Virus record (IMG/VR): IMGVR_UViG_3300037341_000028
Location: 1 to 48,856 of that record
Length of the DNA: 48,856 nt
Reading direction: 5' to 3' (one strand)
Source: a virus
Part shown: positions 26,015 through 33,845 of the stretch, piece by piece
Layout: each line of letters begins with the position of its first letter
How positions within the stretch are numbered: position 1 is the stretch's first letter
Position numbers and translations under genes: made by a program
Notes under the pieces: model-generated
What the model saw: the letters and a program-made list of their open reading frames with translations, nothing else
Told to the model about the DNA's origin: nothing
Database searches by the model: none

Positions 26015-26078
26015 CATTGGATGGTGGGCGCTCGCTATCTTTTGTATCTACATCGCGCTATGGGGGGTGTTCGGATGA
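26007..26078 (+). CDS. 23-residue membrane peptide
   Basis: ATG at 26007, inside the end of the zinc-ribbon gene with AAGGAGCGGG upstream; stop overlaps the ATG of the Myb-like gene. The chain MRDIGWWALAIFCIYIALWG plus VFG is one hydrophobic helix. Coupled on both sides, so it is either a translated membrane peptide or a coupling leader. Confidence 0.5.
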   Translation: MRDIGWWALAIFCIYIALWGVFG

Positions 26079-26698
26079 CACGCCGCGCATGGACACCTGA
26101 GGAGGATACACGCCTCGTTGAGATGGCACAGCAGGGCGCGCTTGCTTGGCAGATTGCACGTGAGCTAGACCGCTCTGTCGACTCGATACGATCGCGGTGC
26201 AAACGCCAACATGGCACTCTGTTTGGATTGCGCACCTATTGGTATGCGCCGCTATCTGCAGGGCAGACAGCAAGTTTGTTTGGGTTTGCAGCCGTCAACT
26301 CCGTGACACGATGGATTGCTAATGGATGGCTGAAGGCGTACCGTGTTTACACATCCCCGAAGCGGAGCGGTACGCGCAACACAGAGTTTCGCATCTCGCA
26401 GGATGGCATCCTGGATTTCATCAGTAAACGAGAGCATTGGATGCGATGGGAGCCAGAACGCATCACCGACCCATACATCCGTGACGAGGCACTGCGGCTC
26501 CGTGCTGAGGCCGATGGGCATTGGATACGCATATCGGATTGGGCAAAAGTACGCGGTTACACGAACGACGCATCGCAACGCTGGATACGGCTCGGATACC
26601 TCACAGGCACACGCCATCATCATTGGTGGTACGTCTGGAGTGAGGACCTCACGGCATTCACACCACCGAGCGAGCGAGGATATGCAAACAAAGGTTGA
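26075..26698 (+). CDS. Myb/SANT-like DNA-binding protein
   Basis: 207 residues from the ATG at 26075 (ATGA overlap). Residues 1-52 are a Myb-like domain: RRAWTPEEDTRLVEMAQQGA, then AWQIARELDRSVDSIRSRCK. A second region (SAGQTASLFGFAAVNSVTRW, IANGWLKAYRVYTSPKR) looks like a MerR/excisionase-type helix-turn-helix with wing, and a third (WIRISDWAKVRGYTNDASQR, WIRLGYLTG) repeats that pattern. It therefore has three DNA-contact units and probably acts as a sequence-specific regulator. Last gene before the pentamer array. Confidence 0.75.
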   Translation: MTRRAWTPEEDTRLVEMAQQGALAWQIARELDRSVDSIRSRCKRQHGTLFGLRTYWYAPLSAGQTASLFGFAAVNSVTRWIANGWLKAYRVYTSPKRSGTRNTEFRISQDGILDFISKREHWMRWEPERITDPYIRDEALRLRAEADGHWIRISDWAKVRGYTNDASQRWIRLGYLTGTRHHHWWYVWSEDLTAFTPPSERGYANKG

Positions 26699-26737
26699 TA
26701 TGCTATTATGGAGTATACATCTATTTATGATGTAGTC

Positions 26738-26884
26738 AGGCGTGGCTAGGCATGGCTAGCCTTTGGCGAGGTGTGGCACGGCATGGCAGGGCAGGCTAGG
26801 CACGGCTGGGCGAGGCACGGCAGGGCAGGCGTGGCGTGGCTTGGCGGCCCCCGGCATGGCGGGGCGGGGCATGGCAAGGCGTGG
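26738..26884 (+). repeat. GC-rich pentamer array 1 (NGGCN units)
   Basis: About 147 bases of imperfect tandem five-base units of the form NGGCN, most often AGGCA, TGGCA, GGGCA, CGGCA and TGGCG. It fills the region 26699-26911 between the Myb-like gene and the next start, apart from an AT-rich stretch at 26699-26737 that may hold a promoter. Strand-asymmetric (G-rich on +). See array 2 at 28168. Confidence 0.85.
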
Positions 26885-26911
26885 ATTTTATTCACAATAG
26901 GAGGTAACACG

Positions 26912-27520
26912 ATGGCAGCAACAGCCAAGAAGGATGCAGGGGTAGTAGAGGTTCCGGGGATTGATATCCTTCGGGTGAATGTTCGGATTGTCGGCATGTC
27001 GGAACTGGTGATGCACGCATGGTCTGATAAAGCAAAGAAGCAGATGCTCGATAAGCAGATGGGGAAGGCGGCCCAGAAGCGGGAGACGAAAGACCCGCAG
27101 CGGGATTATGAAGAGGCGTTCTACCGCCTCCCCGACGGGCGCCCGTGTTTCCCCTCTATTGCCTTTAAGGCTGCGATTGTGAGCGCCGCTCGGCAAGTGG
27201 ACGGGTTGCCGATGACGTTTCTGCGTGGTGCACTCCATATCGATGGCGAGTTTGTGCCGATTGAAGGCGAGCCGCGTATGAGGGAGGACACGGTACGCGT
27301 GGGCAATGGCACCGCCGATCTGCGCTACCGGCCCGGCTTCCCAGAGTGGAGCGCCACACTGCCCATCCGCCTCAATCGCCGGGCCTTGACGCTTGAGCAA
27401 CTTCTGGCACTGATTGATCAGGCGGGGTTCTCGGTTGGGGTTGGGGAGTTTCGCCCAGAGAAGGATGGGGCATGGGGTATGTTTGAGGTAGACATTAATG
27501 CTGTGGAGGTGCTCAATTGA
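26912..27520 (+). CDS. Conserved phage protein upstream of repeat array 2, unknown activity
   Basis: 202 residues from the ATG at 26912 (AGGAGGTAACACG upstream). The body contains LVMHAWSDKAKKQMLDKQMG, YRLPDGRPCFPSIAFKAAIV, PRMREDTVRVGNGTADLRYR, PIRLNRRALTLEQLLALIDQ and GVGEFRPEKDGAWGMFEVDI. I recognise this order from other tailed phages, where the gene sits in early modules; the glycine-rich end recalls RAMP/Cas7-like folds but that is only an impression. It is flanked on both sides by the pentamer arrays together with the next gene. Confidence 0.7.
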   Translation: MAATAKKDAGVVEVPGIDILRVNVRIVGMSELVMHAWSDKAKKQMLDKQMGKAAQKRETKDPQRDYEEAFYRLPDGRPCFPSIAFKAAIVSAARQVDGLPMTFLRGALHIDGEFVPIEGEPRMREDTVRVGNGTADLRYRPGFPEWSATLPIRLNRRALTLEQLLALIDQAGFSVGVGEFRPEKDGAWGMFEVDINAVEVLN

Positions 27521-28167
27521 CAGAAATACAACCGCACAACCCAGTGTACATCTCTCACGGTTTCGGGTGGGCAGCGGATGCCTGGAAAGACAAGCGATTG
27601 CAGGGCGTTGACGATGCTGAACTCAATGCAATTATAGAGCGCCATCTGTCACCTTCTGGTGCCATCAACGTCTATACACTGGTGAATGAAGCGGCCAGTG
27701 CAAGCCACCCCCTGCACGAGTTTTTTTATGCTGAAGATGACAAACAGGCTGCGTACCGCTGGCGTGGCAGTCAGGGGCAAGAAATACTGCGCAGCGTTGT
27801 GCGACTTTGGCGCAATACCCACACAAACGAAATTCAGCGTGATACTGATCGGGCATTTGTGTCGATGGGTATGGGCGGTAAGACAGAACACGAGGGTGTG
27901 TATAAACTTGTAGAAGTCAAACGCCCCGAACTACCCGCGCCATCGGCAGAAACAAAAAAACAATGCCAAATAAAACGATCAACGCAACCCGAACCACAGC
28001 CGCAACCTTTACGCGTGGCTGCACCGTCGCCTGCTGCAACAAATGAACTACCAGAACAACACAAACGGGCACTCGGCATCCTGAAAAAGTGGGCAGAGAG
28101 CTATCGAGACAACCCGTACTTCGCGCCCATTGTGGCGGTGGTTGACAGTTACCCCGACCCGGATTAG
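27517..28167 (+). CDS. Early phage protein, unknown, paired with the preceding gene
   Basis: 216 residues, apparently from a TTG overlapping the previous stop. Residues 45-95 (INVYTLVNEAASASHPLHEF, FYAEDDKQAAYRWRGSQGQE, ILRSVVRLW) match a pattern common in phage early proteins: a short helix, H/P-L-H-x-x-F-x-W/Y-D-D, then a helix with R...Q...I. A basic Pro/Gln-rich linker and a C-terminal helix (HKRALGILKKWAESYRDNPY) follow. It may be a regulator; no proof. Ends where array 2 begins. Confidence 0.65.
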   Translation: MTEIQPHNPVYISHGFGWAADAWKDKRLQGVDDAELNAIIERHLSPSGAINVYTLVNEAASASHPLHEFFYAEDDKQAAYRWRGSQGQEILRSVVRLWRNTHTNEIQRDTDRAFVSMGMGGKTEHEGVYKLVEVKRPELPAPSAETKKQCQIKRSTQPEPQPQPLRVAAPSPAATNELPEQHKRALGILKKWAESYRDNPYFAPIVAVVDSYPDPD

Positions 28168-28382
28168 ACACGGCAGGCAAGGCTAGCGGGGCTAGGCAGG
28201 TCCCGGCCCGGCAAGGCTTGGTATGGCAAGGCAAGGCAGGCATGGCAGGGCAGGGCGTGACCAGGCAAGGCTCGGCATGGTTGGGCAAGGCTTGGGAACC
28301 TGGGCACGTTCGAAAACTGCCCACAAGGCAGGCGGGGCAAGGCGCGGCGTGGCCAGGCCGGGCGAGGCGTGGCACGGCAAGG
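28168..28382 (+). repeat. GC-rich pentamer array 2 (NGGCN units)
   Basis: About 215 bases of the same degenerate pentamers as array 1, starting at the stop of the preceding gene and ending 26 bases before the dCTP-deaminase-like gene. It is interrupted at 28297-28326 by an island containing a hairpin (TGGGCA at 28301-28306 and TGCCCA at 28318-28323). An ORF passes through it only because the repeats lack stop codons. Confidence 0.85.
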
Positions 28383-28408
28383 TTTTTTACAGAAGGGAGA
28401 GGGGGGGT

Positions 28409-28969
28409 ATGATATTAGGAAACGACGCAATCAAGGCGGCGCTTGACGCGGGCCACATCGTGTGTGATCCCGCGCCCGACGCTGCCGCTATCCAGACACA
28501 TATCGACGTGCATCTAGGCGCAGCGTTCTGGGTGCCGCGCCCGAATAGCGCGCCGATTGACATGCGGCACTGCGACCCACACGACTACTATATGTTATTA
28601 GAGAACTGCACAGAACACGACCCGGTGATACTGTCGCCGGGCGGGTTTGCACTGGCACACACCGACGAATACGTCGGCACTACGGTGCCGTGGCTGGAGC
28701 CGCACCTCGAGACGCGCTCGACCGTGGCGCGGTGGGGCATCACCGTCCACGTGAGTGCCGGGATAGGCGACGCCGGGTATTGCTCACGGTGGACACTCGA
28801 GCTGTACAACCACAACAACGTTTCCATCCGGGTATACGCCGGGCTACGTATCGGATTAATCAAATTCTACCGCGTCGAGAGTAATAGCAGCCTCTACACA
28901 GGCCGATACAACACGCCTGCAACCGAGTGGCAGGCCACGGCAATGCTGCCGCGCCGGGGGAATGTATGA
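28409..28969 (+). CDS. dcd: dCTP deaminase / dUTPase family enzyme
   Basis: 186 residues from the ATG at 28409 behind AGGGAGAGGGGGG. It has the trimeric dUTPase-like fold order: MILGNDAIKAALDAGHIV, VILSPGGFALAHTDEYVG (conserved P-G-x-F-x-L), ETRSTVARWG with Ser104 and Arg108, VSAGIGDAGYCSRWTLELYN with Glu131, and YAGLRIGLIKFYRV. Ser, Arg and Glu fit dCTP deaminases, which make dUTP from dCTP. It likely adjusts nucleotide pools for phage replication; whether it also hydrolyses dUTP cannot be told. Confidence 0.85.
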   Translation: MILGNDAIKAALDAGHIVCDPAPDAAAIQTHIDVHLGAAFWVPRPNSAPIDMRHCDPHDYYMLLENCTEHDPVILSPGGFALAHTDEYVGTTVPWLEPHLETRSTVARWGITVHVSAGIGDAGYCSRWTLELYNHNNVSIRVYAGLRIGLIKFYRVESNSSLYTGRYNTPATEWQATAMLPRRGNV

Positions 28970-32721: not shown

Positions 32722-32777
32722 TTGTACAGGATTGACACAACGTGTTATAATTGGCTTATAAGTTTGTTATAAGTTGT
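32722..32777 (+). promoter_or_regulatory. parC: parM promoter with three 11-bp tandem repeats (parC candidate)
   Basis: Three contiguous 11-mers at 32745-32755 (TTATAATTGGC), 32756-32766 (TTATAAGTTTG) and 32767-32777 (TTATAAGTTGT). They overlap the -10 region: TTGTAC (32722), 18 bases, TATAAT (32746), or TTGACA (32732), 19 bases, TATAAG (32757). In plasmid R1, ParR binds 11-bp direct repeats around the parM promoter to form the centromere and repress the operon. The same repeat length and place here support a parC function; only three copies are seen, against ten in R1. Confidence 0.7.
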
Positions 32778-32792
32778 TGTGAGGAGGGGTGT

Positions 32793-33845
32793 ATGCATGT
32801 CGTGTATGATGATGGGGCTGGATTGACAAAGGCAGGCATAGCGGGCAATGGAATGCAGGTCACGGCGATACCAGCACTGGTGCTACCCGTTGAGGCGGGT
32901 ATGGATGAGGAGTACCTATTGCGTTCTGATGTGATTGTTATCGGTCATAATCGTAATCAGTATCTTGTGGGCGATGCGGCCCGCGCACAGGGCGCCACTG
33001 CCTATGCCACAAGCAACTACCGCTACACGTCGCCAGATGCGCGCATCCGCCTCTACGCGGCGCTGTCCGAACTACTCCCGCCTGGAGAGCACGCCATTCG
33101 GATGGTCGCGGGGGCGAACGCGGAAGCATATCGCGCATTAAAACGCGATATTCAAGACTTCTTCACAGGCTCACACGAGTTCACGCGAGCGGACGCGAGC
33201 TACCGTGTGAATATCACAGACGTGCATGTGACCTCACAGCCGCGTGGCGCCGTGCTCTATTTCAGCGCACATACTCCTGCTGAACTGAAACAGGCACTCC
33301 AGAAGCGACCGCTCCATAGGGCCAACATTATTGGTATTGACGTGGGCACATTCACCACCGATTTGATCGCGCTCCGGCCCGAACGGCGCGCCGATGGCAG
33401 CAGTGAAATGCAAGAAATCTACCGGCGTTCTAAAGCGTTGCGGTTTGGCGTCCAGACGCTACGCAATAAGGTTGCCGAGTTGATCCAGCGATTGCAAGGC
33501 GCGCCGGGTCTGCCGGAACTCTGGGAGGTTGATCGGGCCATTGCAGAGCGGGTTGTGACCATTGACGGCAAGGATGAGAGCATCGCGCCTGAGATTGACG
33601 ACCTTCGTGATAGTCTCTGGGCACGCGCACATGAGGAGATACGTGCCCATTTTGAAGGTTTCTCAACGCATTATTTGCTGGTTGTCGGAGGAGGCGCAAC
33701 AGATACGACGTTCGGGCCGTCCATTCGTGCAACGTGGCACGGAAAACTGCCGATGGGAATGCCAGAAAAACACGCGCCACACGAGGCGCCTGTCAGGGGA
33801 TATGCAGAAATGGCTGTGCAGAAGTGGGGCCGTGACAATGCCTGA
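32793..33845 (+). CDS. parM: ParM-like actin, segregation ATPase
   Basis: 350 residues from the ATG at 32793 (GAGGAGGGG upstream). Actin-fold motifs are clear: phosphate 1 VYDDGAGLTKAG at 4-15, phosphate 2 IIGIDVGTFTTDLIAL at 179-194 and adenosine motif YLLVVGGGATD at 294-304. Length and motif spacing match ParM/StbA and related plasmid actins (about 320-350). These polymerise into filaments that push or pull DNA bound through ParR. The parR-like gene overlaps its end by 8 bases, and three 11-bp repeats precede it. Phage relatives such as AlpC move prophage DNA, an alternative role. Confidence 0.9.
   Translation: MHVVYDDGAGLTKAGIAGNGMQVTAIPALVLPVEAGMDEEYLLRSDVIVIGHNRNQYLVGDAARAQGATAYATSNYRYTSPDARIRLYAALSELLPPGEHAIRMVAGANAEAYRALKRDIQDFFTGSHEFTRADASYRVNITDVHVTSQPRGAVLYFSAHTPAELKQALQKRPLHRANIIGIDVGTFTTDLIALRPERRADGSSEMQEIYRRSKALRFGVQTLRNKVAELIQRLQGAPGLPELWEVDRAIAERVVTIDGKDESIAPEIDDLRDSLWARAHEEIRAHFEGFSTHYLLVVGGGATDTTFGPSIRATWHGKLPMGMPEKHAPHEAPVRGYAEMAVQKWGRDNA

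What the first reader, a model, noticed from the sequence alone, without database searches (positions are those of the whole stretch)
26738..28382. Two GC-rich pentamer arrays flank a two-gene cassette
Degenerate NGGCN tandem units fill the gaps on both sides of the genes at 26912-28167, about 147 and 215 bases long, and nothing like them occurs elsewhere in the window. The strong strand bias (G on the + strand) and placement suggest recombination hot spots, slippage-prone spacers or sites bound by a phage protein. The genes inside may be an exchangeable module.
Basis: seen in the sequence. Interest (0 to 1): 0.7.

Follow-up and report, generated by a model that had tools for sequence, protein, structure and literature searches.

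The report
Phage RNA-guide (VIPR) gene cassette
The two strange GGC-rich repeat arrays look like guide-RNA genes of a phage-encoded, CRISPR-related RNA-guided system called VIPR, described only in 2026, that some phages use to switch off genes of rival phages; this is a new example in an uncultivated phage whose target remains unknown.

Summary
The arrays are real: all 43 matches to five-unit GGCNN (up to 2 mismatches) lie in the two gaps, all on the + strand, against 0.47 expected. They are not recombination spacers. The first enclosed gene (26912-27520) is a homologue of the SUSP1 Vipr protein (profile E 6.8e-42). Its model (pLDDT 95) matches CRISPR Cas7/Csm3 subunits. A preprint, PMC13142463, describes this layout as VIPR: a Vipr RAMP protein, an accessory gene, and flanking arrays transcribed as vrRNAs in which GGY is scaffold and NN is guide, read against dsDNA with one skipped base. 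A protein-blind scan for (GGCNN)x8 in IMG/VR returned 120 loci; 85 have a Vipr within 863 bp, 83 of those on the same strand. In five close relatives vipr DNA is 82-93% identical, yet no six-unit guide string is shared with the window. Inference: about three vrRNAs program Vipr to repress other phages. No target was found for three window guides or three relatives' guides in IMG/VR; the skip rule could not be confirmed here. Verdict: observation confirmed; new member of a known, very recent kind; the arrays, not vipr, are the fast-changing part.

The parts
26739..26823 (+). Distal part of the upstream GGCNN array: candidate older or overlapping vrRNA units (26739-26789; GGCA 26790-26793; six units 26794-26823)
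   Evidence: Parse; similar but rearranged in relatives
26824..26882 (+). Candidate vrRNA 1: leader GGCA, nine NN units (GT GT TT GG CC AT GG GG AT; one unit has CCC for GGC), then GGCAA GGCGT
26883..26904 (+). End motif GGATTTTATTCACA... running into the ribosome-binding site of vipr; conserved, with small changes, in all six phages of the group
   Evidence: Alignment A3
26912..27520 (+). vipr: RAMP/Cas7-like protein, PHROG 4652
27517..28167 (+). Second gene in the vap position, TTG start overlapping the vipr stop; PHROG 15946, function unknown; absent in relative L007
28172..28234 (+). First, irregular part of the downstream array
28235..28293 (+). Candidate vrRNA 2: leader GGCA, nine NN units (AT AG AG GT CA AA TC AT TG; one unit has GAC), then GGCAA GGCTT
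28294..28324 (+). Invariant 3' tail GGGAACCTGGGCACGTTCGAAAACTGCCCAC
   Evidence: Found in 4 of 5 close relatives with 0-2 mismatches; predicted hairpin is no stronger than shuffles
28327..28380 (+). Candidate vrRNA 3: leader GGCA, nine NN units (GG AA GC GT CA CG GA GT AC), then GGCAA and a T run

Best explanation
This is a VIPR (Viral Interference Programmable Repeat) locus. The arrays are transcribed on the + strand into short vrRNAs, each with a GGCA leader, about nine or more GGC-NN units, and an end or tail. Vipr subunits coat the RNA; the fixed GGC is held by the protein and each NN pairs with two bases of double-stranded DNA, with one base skipped between pairs. The loaded complex blocks transcription of a chosen gene, most likely of a competing phage, prophage or satellite in the same host. 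Shown here: homology of the protein, its RAMP fold, array architecture, association of array and gene across phages, and guide turnover. Inferred from the published system: transcription, RNA binding, the skip rule, DNA targeting and repression.
For: Vipr homology: profile of 81 relatives against the PDB gives 36pp 'SUSP1 Vipr protein' at 6.8e-42; the window protein alone 6.4e-6. Fold: pLDDT 95.2, pTM 0.87; all 50 Foldseek rows shown are CRISPR effector chains, VIA Z up to 12.3 over 141-158 residues. Conserved C-terminal AGxxxGxGDxRPxxxGxxGRFxV, glycine-rich-loop-like (label recalled). Arrays: 43 matches against 0.47 expected. DNA-only scan: 85 of 120 array loci have Vipr within 863 bp, 83 of 85 same strand. 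Guides differ: 0 six-unit strings shared between window and 5 relatives while vipr is 82-93% identical. Tail kept in 4 of 5 relatives. Same two-gene layout between GGY arrays in Felixounavirus wV8, whose gene 95 matches the Vipr profile at 2.3e-48. Paper PMC13142463, whole main text read.
Against: No natural target was found: 3 window guides and 3 relatives' guides scanned over IMG/VR gave only chance-like hits. In the loci held here the 1-base skip does not clearly beat other skips or shuffled guides once loci fetched because they match are set aside. The tail hairpin is no stronger than shuffles (z -0.1 to -0.2). 35 of 120 array loci have no Vipr in the locus. The second gene shows no similarity to wV8 gene 94. 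No promoter-like site on + was called just upstream of array 1 and no terminator in 26500-28500.
Confidence: 0.93

Rival explanations
1. The arrays are DNA sites: an iteron-like or centromere-like array bound by a phage protein (for replication or by the ParM-like partition gene at 32751-33845), not guide RNA genes.
For: Regular 5-base period; an actin-like partition gene lies in the window.
Against: Arrays associate with the Vipr gene on the coding strand in 83 of 85 loci, while NN is free; the fold of the neighbour is that of a guide-RNA-binding RAMP. Iterons would be expected to keep whole units.
Confidence: 0.03
2. Slippage-prone or recombinogenic GC-rich spacers without function.
For: Array length differs among relatives (downstream spans of 48 to 347 bases) and some IMG/VR pattern hits are plain repeats (6 of 35 loci without Vipr have 3 or fewer kinds of NN).
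Against: Slippage makes neighbouring units alike; here NN is diverse, GGC is kept at a fixed step, and the GGCA leader and the tail are conserved.
Confidence: 0.02
3. The locus is a VIPR derivative whose Vipr and RNAs now act on host or the phage's own genes as a regulator, rather than against rival phages.
For: No rival-phage target found in IMG/VR for six guides. The host genome is unknown, so host targets were not searched.
Against: No good match of the guides in the window or the five relatives; guides turn over fast, as expected in a conflict; published natural targets are mostly satellites and prophages.
Confidence: 0.1

Closest known systems
VIPR systems (SUSP1, type II, and the Pseudomonas fulva prophage), PMC13142463
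   Same: RAMP-fold Vipr homologue; two-gene cassette; GGY/NN arrays on both sides; a conserved 3' tail; phage-encoded.
   Different: Vipr is distant from SUSP1 (about 20% identical to the wV8 Vipr in the profile alignment); the second gene shows no similarity to wV8 gene 94; target unknown. The type (I-VII) was not assigned.
Mycobacterium phages Saal and ByChance (genus Cheoctovirus) and Gordonia phage Pipp: unnamed Vipr homologues
   Same: Vipr 47-49% identical to the window's; Saal and ByChance carry a GGCNN array just upstream and a second-gene homologue.
   Different: In Saal the array lies on one side only in the stretch read; the genes are annotated 'hypothetical protein'. No array count was made for Pipp.
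Class 1 CRISPR-Cas effector subunit Csm3/Cas7
   Same: Fold: Z up to 12.3, 11-14% sequence identity in the top rows.
   Different: No CRISPR repeat-spacer array in this stretch; pentamer guides instead; a single RAMP gene.

Membership tests
VIPR | vipr gene: RAMP homologue with the RRM-type/Cas7 fold | tested here: met
   PDB profile hit to SUSP1 Vipr 6.8e-42; Csm3-like fold
VIPR | Encoded in a phage or other mobile element (most cases) | tested here: met
   Window carries portal, terminase, capsid and tape-measure genes
VIPR | Intergenic arrays of 9-16 GGY-NN pentamers flanking vipr | tested here: met
   Three candidate vrRNAs, each nine NN units plus one or two semi-constant units, some with one substituted GGC; one upstream and two downstream
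VIPR | GGY conserved, NN hypervariable among relatives | tested here: met
   0 shared six-unit strings between window and each of 5 relatives
VIPR | Invariant structured 3' tail on each vrRNA | tested here: inconclusive
   31-base tail after vrRNA 2 in 4 of 5 relatives; hairpin no better than shuffles; vrRNA 1 and 3 end in other conserved motifs
VIPR | vap accessory gene | tested here: inconclusive
VIPR | vrRNA expressed and bound by Vipr | not testable with these tools
   Needs RNA sequencing and pull-down
VIPR | Target recognition with a 1-base skip | tested here: inconclusive
   No target found; skip controls at chance level
CRISPR-Cas class 1 | CRISPR array of direct repeats with unique spacers | tested here: not met
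   Only pentamer-based repeats in this stretch
CRISPR-Cas class 1 | Several cas genes beside the array | tested here: inconclusive
   The first gene's family showed no convincing PADLOC match; the window's other proteins were not scanned against PADLOC

The most novel reading that the evidence does not exclude
Guide arrays are the traded currency: in this mosaic phage group the vipr gene is a fixed anchor while whole guide arrays, and even the accessory gene, are replaced between phages whose vipr is over 90% identical. Arrays also travel without any vipr (17 of 19 whole contigs with an array and no Vipr beside it carry no detectable Vipr), so some elements may supply guides to, or parasitise, a Vipr made by another phage in the same cell.
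Probability: 0.25. Interest if true: 0.75.

Novelty: new member of a known kind. Interest (0 to 1): 0.5.

Why it matters
VIPR is proposed to be older than CRISPR and uses a gapped guide code. This locus and its relatives add a group in which guide turnover between near relatives can be read directly, a natural vipr locus without the accessory gene, and arrays without a vipr. A plain DNA pattern, (GGCNN)x8, finds such loci without protein search, so an odd repeat seen by eye leads to an RNA-guided system. It also suggests a function for a phage family (PHROG 4652) still listed as unknown.

Tried and rejected
Rejected readings. An RNA site bound by a ring protein such as TRAP (recalled from memory) was a lead until the PDB hit to Vipr. 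Rfam had no match in 26600-28500 up to E 1. Pfam, PADLOC and NCBIfam gave no family for the window protein, and single-member weak hits only among its relatives. The literal sequence GGCAAGGCAAGGC in papers gave two unrelated hits (search listing only).

Target searches that led nowhere. The all-guides-against-all-loci counts: one search kept all arrays; one search dropped low-complexity arrays (L056, L112, L120 and runs with fewer than five kinds of NN) and duplicate loci. One search also includes loci that had been fetched because they match window guides, so its 18-of-18 rows for the window are biased. The best single hit is window vrRNA 3, 20 of 20 bases including the semi-constant AA unit, in L172 and L174. 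It lies in a capsid-like protein (a guess from its sequence) of a contig of about 37% GC; about 0.02 such hits are expected by my estimate, so I treat it as chance. Two sphingomonad prophage guides against 397 family genomes each: 0 hits; one of them also against 11 whole genomes: five 2-mismatch hits and one control hit. A test whether NN looks like codon positions 1-2 favoured that phase in 3 of 3 sets but scarcely better than uniform, or worse. Host search: no genome relative with the single protein; 44 with an alignment, the best 53% identical, so the host is unknown. In the fold search no SUSP1 Vipr row was shown (library to 2026-04-08).

Full report
What is there. The window is a 48,856-base IMG/VR virus record with portal, large terminase, capsid, primase/helicase and tape-measure genes. 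Between a Myb-like/D5-like regulator gene (26021-26698) and a dCTP-deaminase-like gene (28409-28969) lie two genes with GGCNN arrays before and after them. Allowing 2 mismatches, the five-unit pattern matches 43 times in the window, all on + and all inside the arrays, against 0.47 in shuffles.

Anatomy. Printed with GGY breaks, the arrays show blocks: a 4-base step GGCA followed by GGC, then about nine GGC-NN units, then a semi-constant end (GGCAA GGCTT or the like). Three complete blocks are clear: 26824-26882, 28235-28293 and 28327-28380. The second is followed by a 31-base tail (28294-28324), present with 0-2 mismatches in 4 of 5 close relatives and not found in the fifth. The tail can form a hairpin, but no better than shuffled sequence. 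The first block runs into a conserved motif and the ribosome-binding site of the next gene.

The protein. The first gene falls in PHROG 4652, 'unknown function'. A profile of 81 relatives finds one convincing PDB chain, 36pp, named 'SUSP1 Vipr protein', at 6.8e-42; the window protein alone finds it at 6.4e-6. AlphaFold2 on 80 relatives gives pLDDT 95.2 and pTM 0.87. The 50 Foldseek rows shown are all CRISPR effector chains, chiefly type III Csm/Cmr and type VII, from E 5.9e-7; VIA-align gives Z 12.3 with four Csm3-type chains at 2.6-3.5 A over 141-158 residues.

The link between array and gene. A Vipr profile, seeded from the window and its relatives and iterated on a set that includes these loci, finds a Vipr in 85 of 120, always within 863 bases (median 61), on the same strand as GGC in 83 of 85. 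Of the 35 without, 6 have three or fewer kinds of NN and look like plain microsatellites; of the other 29, 19 whole contigs were searched and 2 carry a Vipr elsewhere; the remaining 10, with arrays near contig ends, were not searched further. From the protein side, 21 of the 36 IMG/VR relatives of the window protein carry GGC arrays on + in the fetched stretch; at least one of the 15 others (L022) carries a more degenerate GGY array that this detector missed.

What it is. PMC13142463 (bioRxiv, 2026; whole main text read; supplement not read) describes VIPR: a Vipr RAMP protein, usually one accessory gene, and vrRNAs of 9-16 YNNGG repeats with a 3' tail. NN pairs with dsDNA with one base skipped, repressing transcription; natural targets are mostly satellites and prophages. 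The window locus matches this in gene order, fold, unit, strand and variability. In wV8, a relative of SUSP1 in the same subfamily Ounavirinae, the same layout is visible, with GGY arrays around gene 95 (profile hit 2.3e-48) and gene 94, and direct repeats annotated at deposit next to the arrays. I did not locate the SUSP1 locus itself: the three stretches fetched (1-2000, 50000-75000 and 72900-90743) gave no Vipr hit. In the paper search, the preprint was the only VIPR paper of this kind listed.

Guide turnover. Among the window and five close relatives, vipr DNA is 82-93% identical to the window's, yet no six-unit NN string is shared with the window; one pair of relatives (G001 and G002) shares two. 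The window and G001 do share a guide stretch with a substituted unit (GT GT TT GG CC AT GG GG) in vrRNA 1, which the strict GGY count does not see. Neighbouring genes are mosaic: the deaminase gene is 95% identical in one relative, 64% in another, and gave no match in three; the second gene gives no match in G004, and locus L007 of that phage runs from vipr through an array straight into the deaminase gene. So the arrays and flanks change faster than vipr.

The second gene. It is PHROG 15946, recurs beside Vipr in many loci including contigs of Sphingomonas, Sphingopyxis and Novosphingobium, has a medium-confidence model (pLDDT 80) and no PDB match below E 0.58. It shows no similarity to wV8 gene 94. 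I call it 'in the vap position' and do not claim which vap it is.

Targets. Three window guides and three guides of relatives, eight units each, were scanned over IMG/VR as gapped patterns: 12, 6, 15, 4, 1 and 12 loci. Extension by the remaining units was at chance level except one 20-of-20 match, present in two contigs, that is probably chance. Nothing convincing was found among the six phages. The skip rule is therefore taken from the paper and is not confirmed here.

Verdict. A VIPR locus, new member of a known kind.

Noticed in passing
L040, L044, L048, L054, L066, L071, L082, L093, L106, L114, L115, L119, L121, L130, L136, L142, L144, L150, L157: Viral contigs with GGCNN arrays but no Vipr in the locus; whole-contig search found a Vipr elsewhere in only 2 of 19. 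Possible free-standing vrRNA arrays or a very divergent partner.
   Followed up: partly
L007:931-2363: Close relative with vipr between two arrays and no second gene: vipr is followed by an array and then the deaminase gene.
   Followed up: partly
L263:1277-2727: In phage wV8 (EU877232) direct repeats 'DR_4' annotated at deposit lie next to or overlap the GGY arrays on both sides of the Vipr-like gene.
   Followed up: partly
L002:3003-3247: Mycobacterium phage Saal has a GGCNN array upstream of gene 51, a Vipr homologue annotated as hypothetical; ATGGCAGGC boundaries recur along it.
   Followed up: partly
L074 and L128: Only two loci where the nearby Vipr lies on the strand opposite to GGC.
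   Followed up: no
L212-L255: 44 bacterial genome contigs with a Vipr, from sphingomonads, actinomycetes, Clostridia, Selenomonadales and others; most have GGY arrays close to the gene.
   Followed up: partly
window:32751-33845: ParM-like actin gene, 91-96% identical in two relatives though much around it differs.
   Followed up: no
window:30230-31102: Gene with a weak N-terminal match to MYG1/DHH phosphoesterase families.
   Followed up: no
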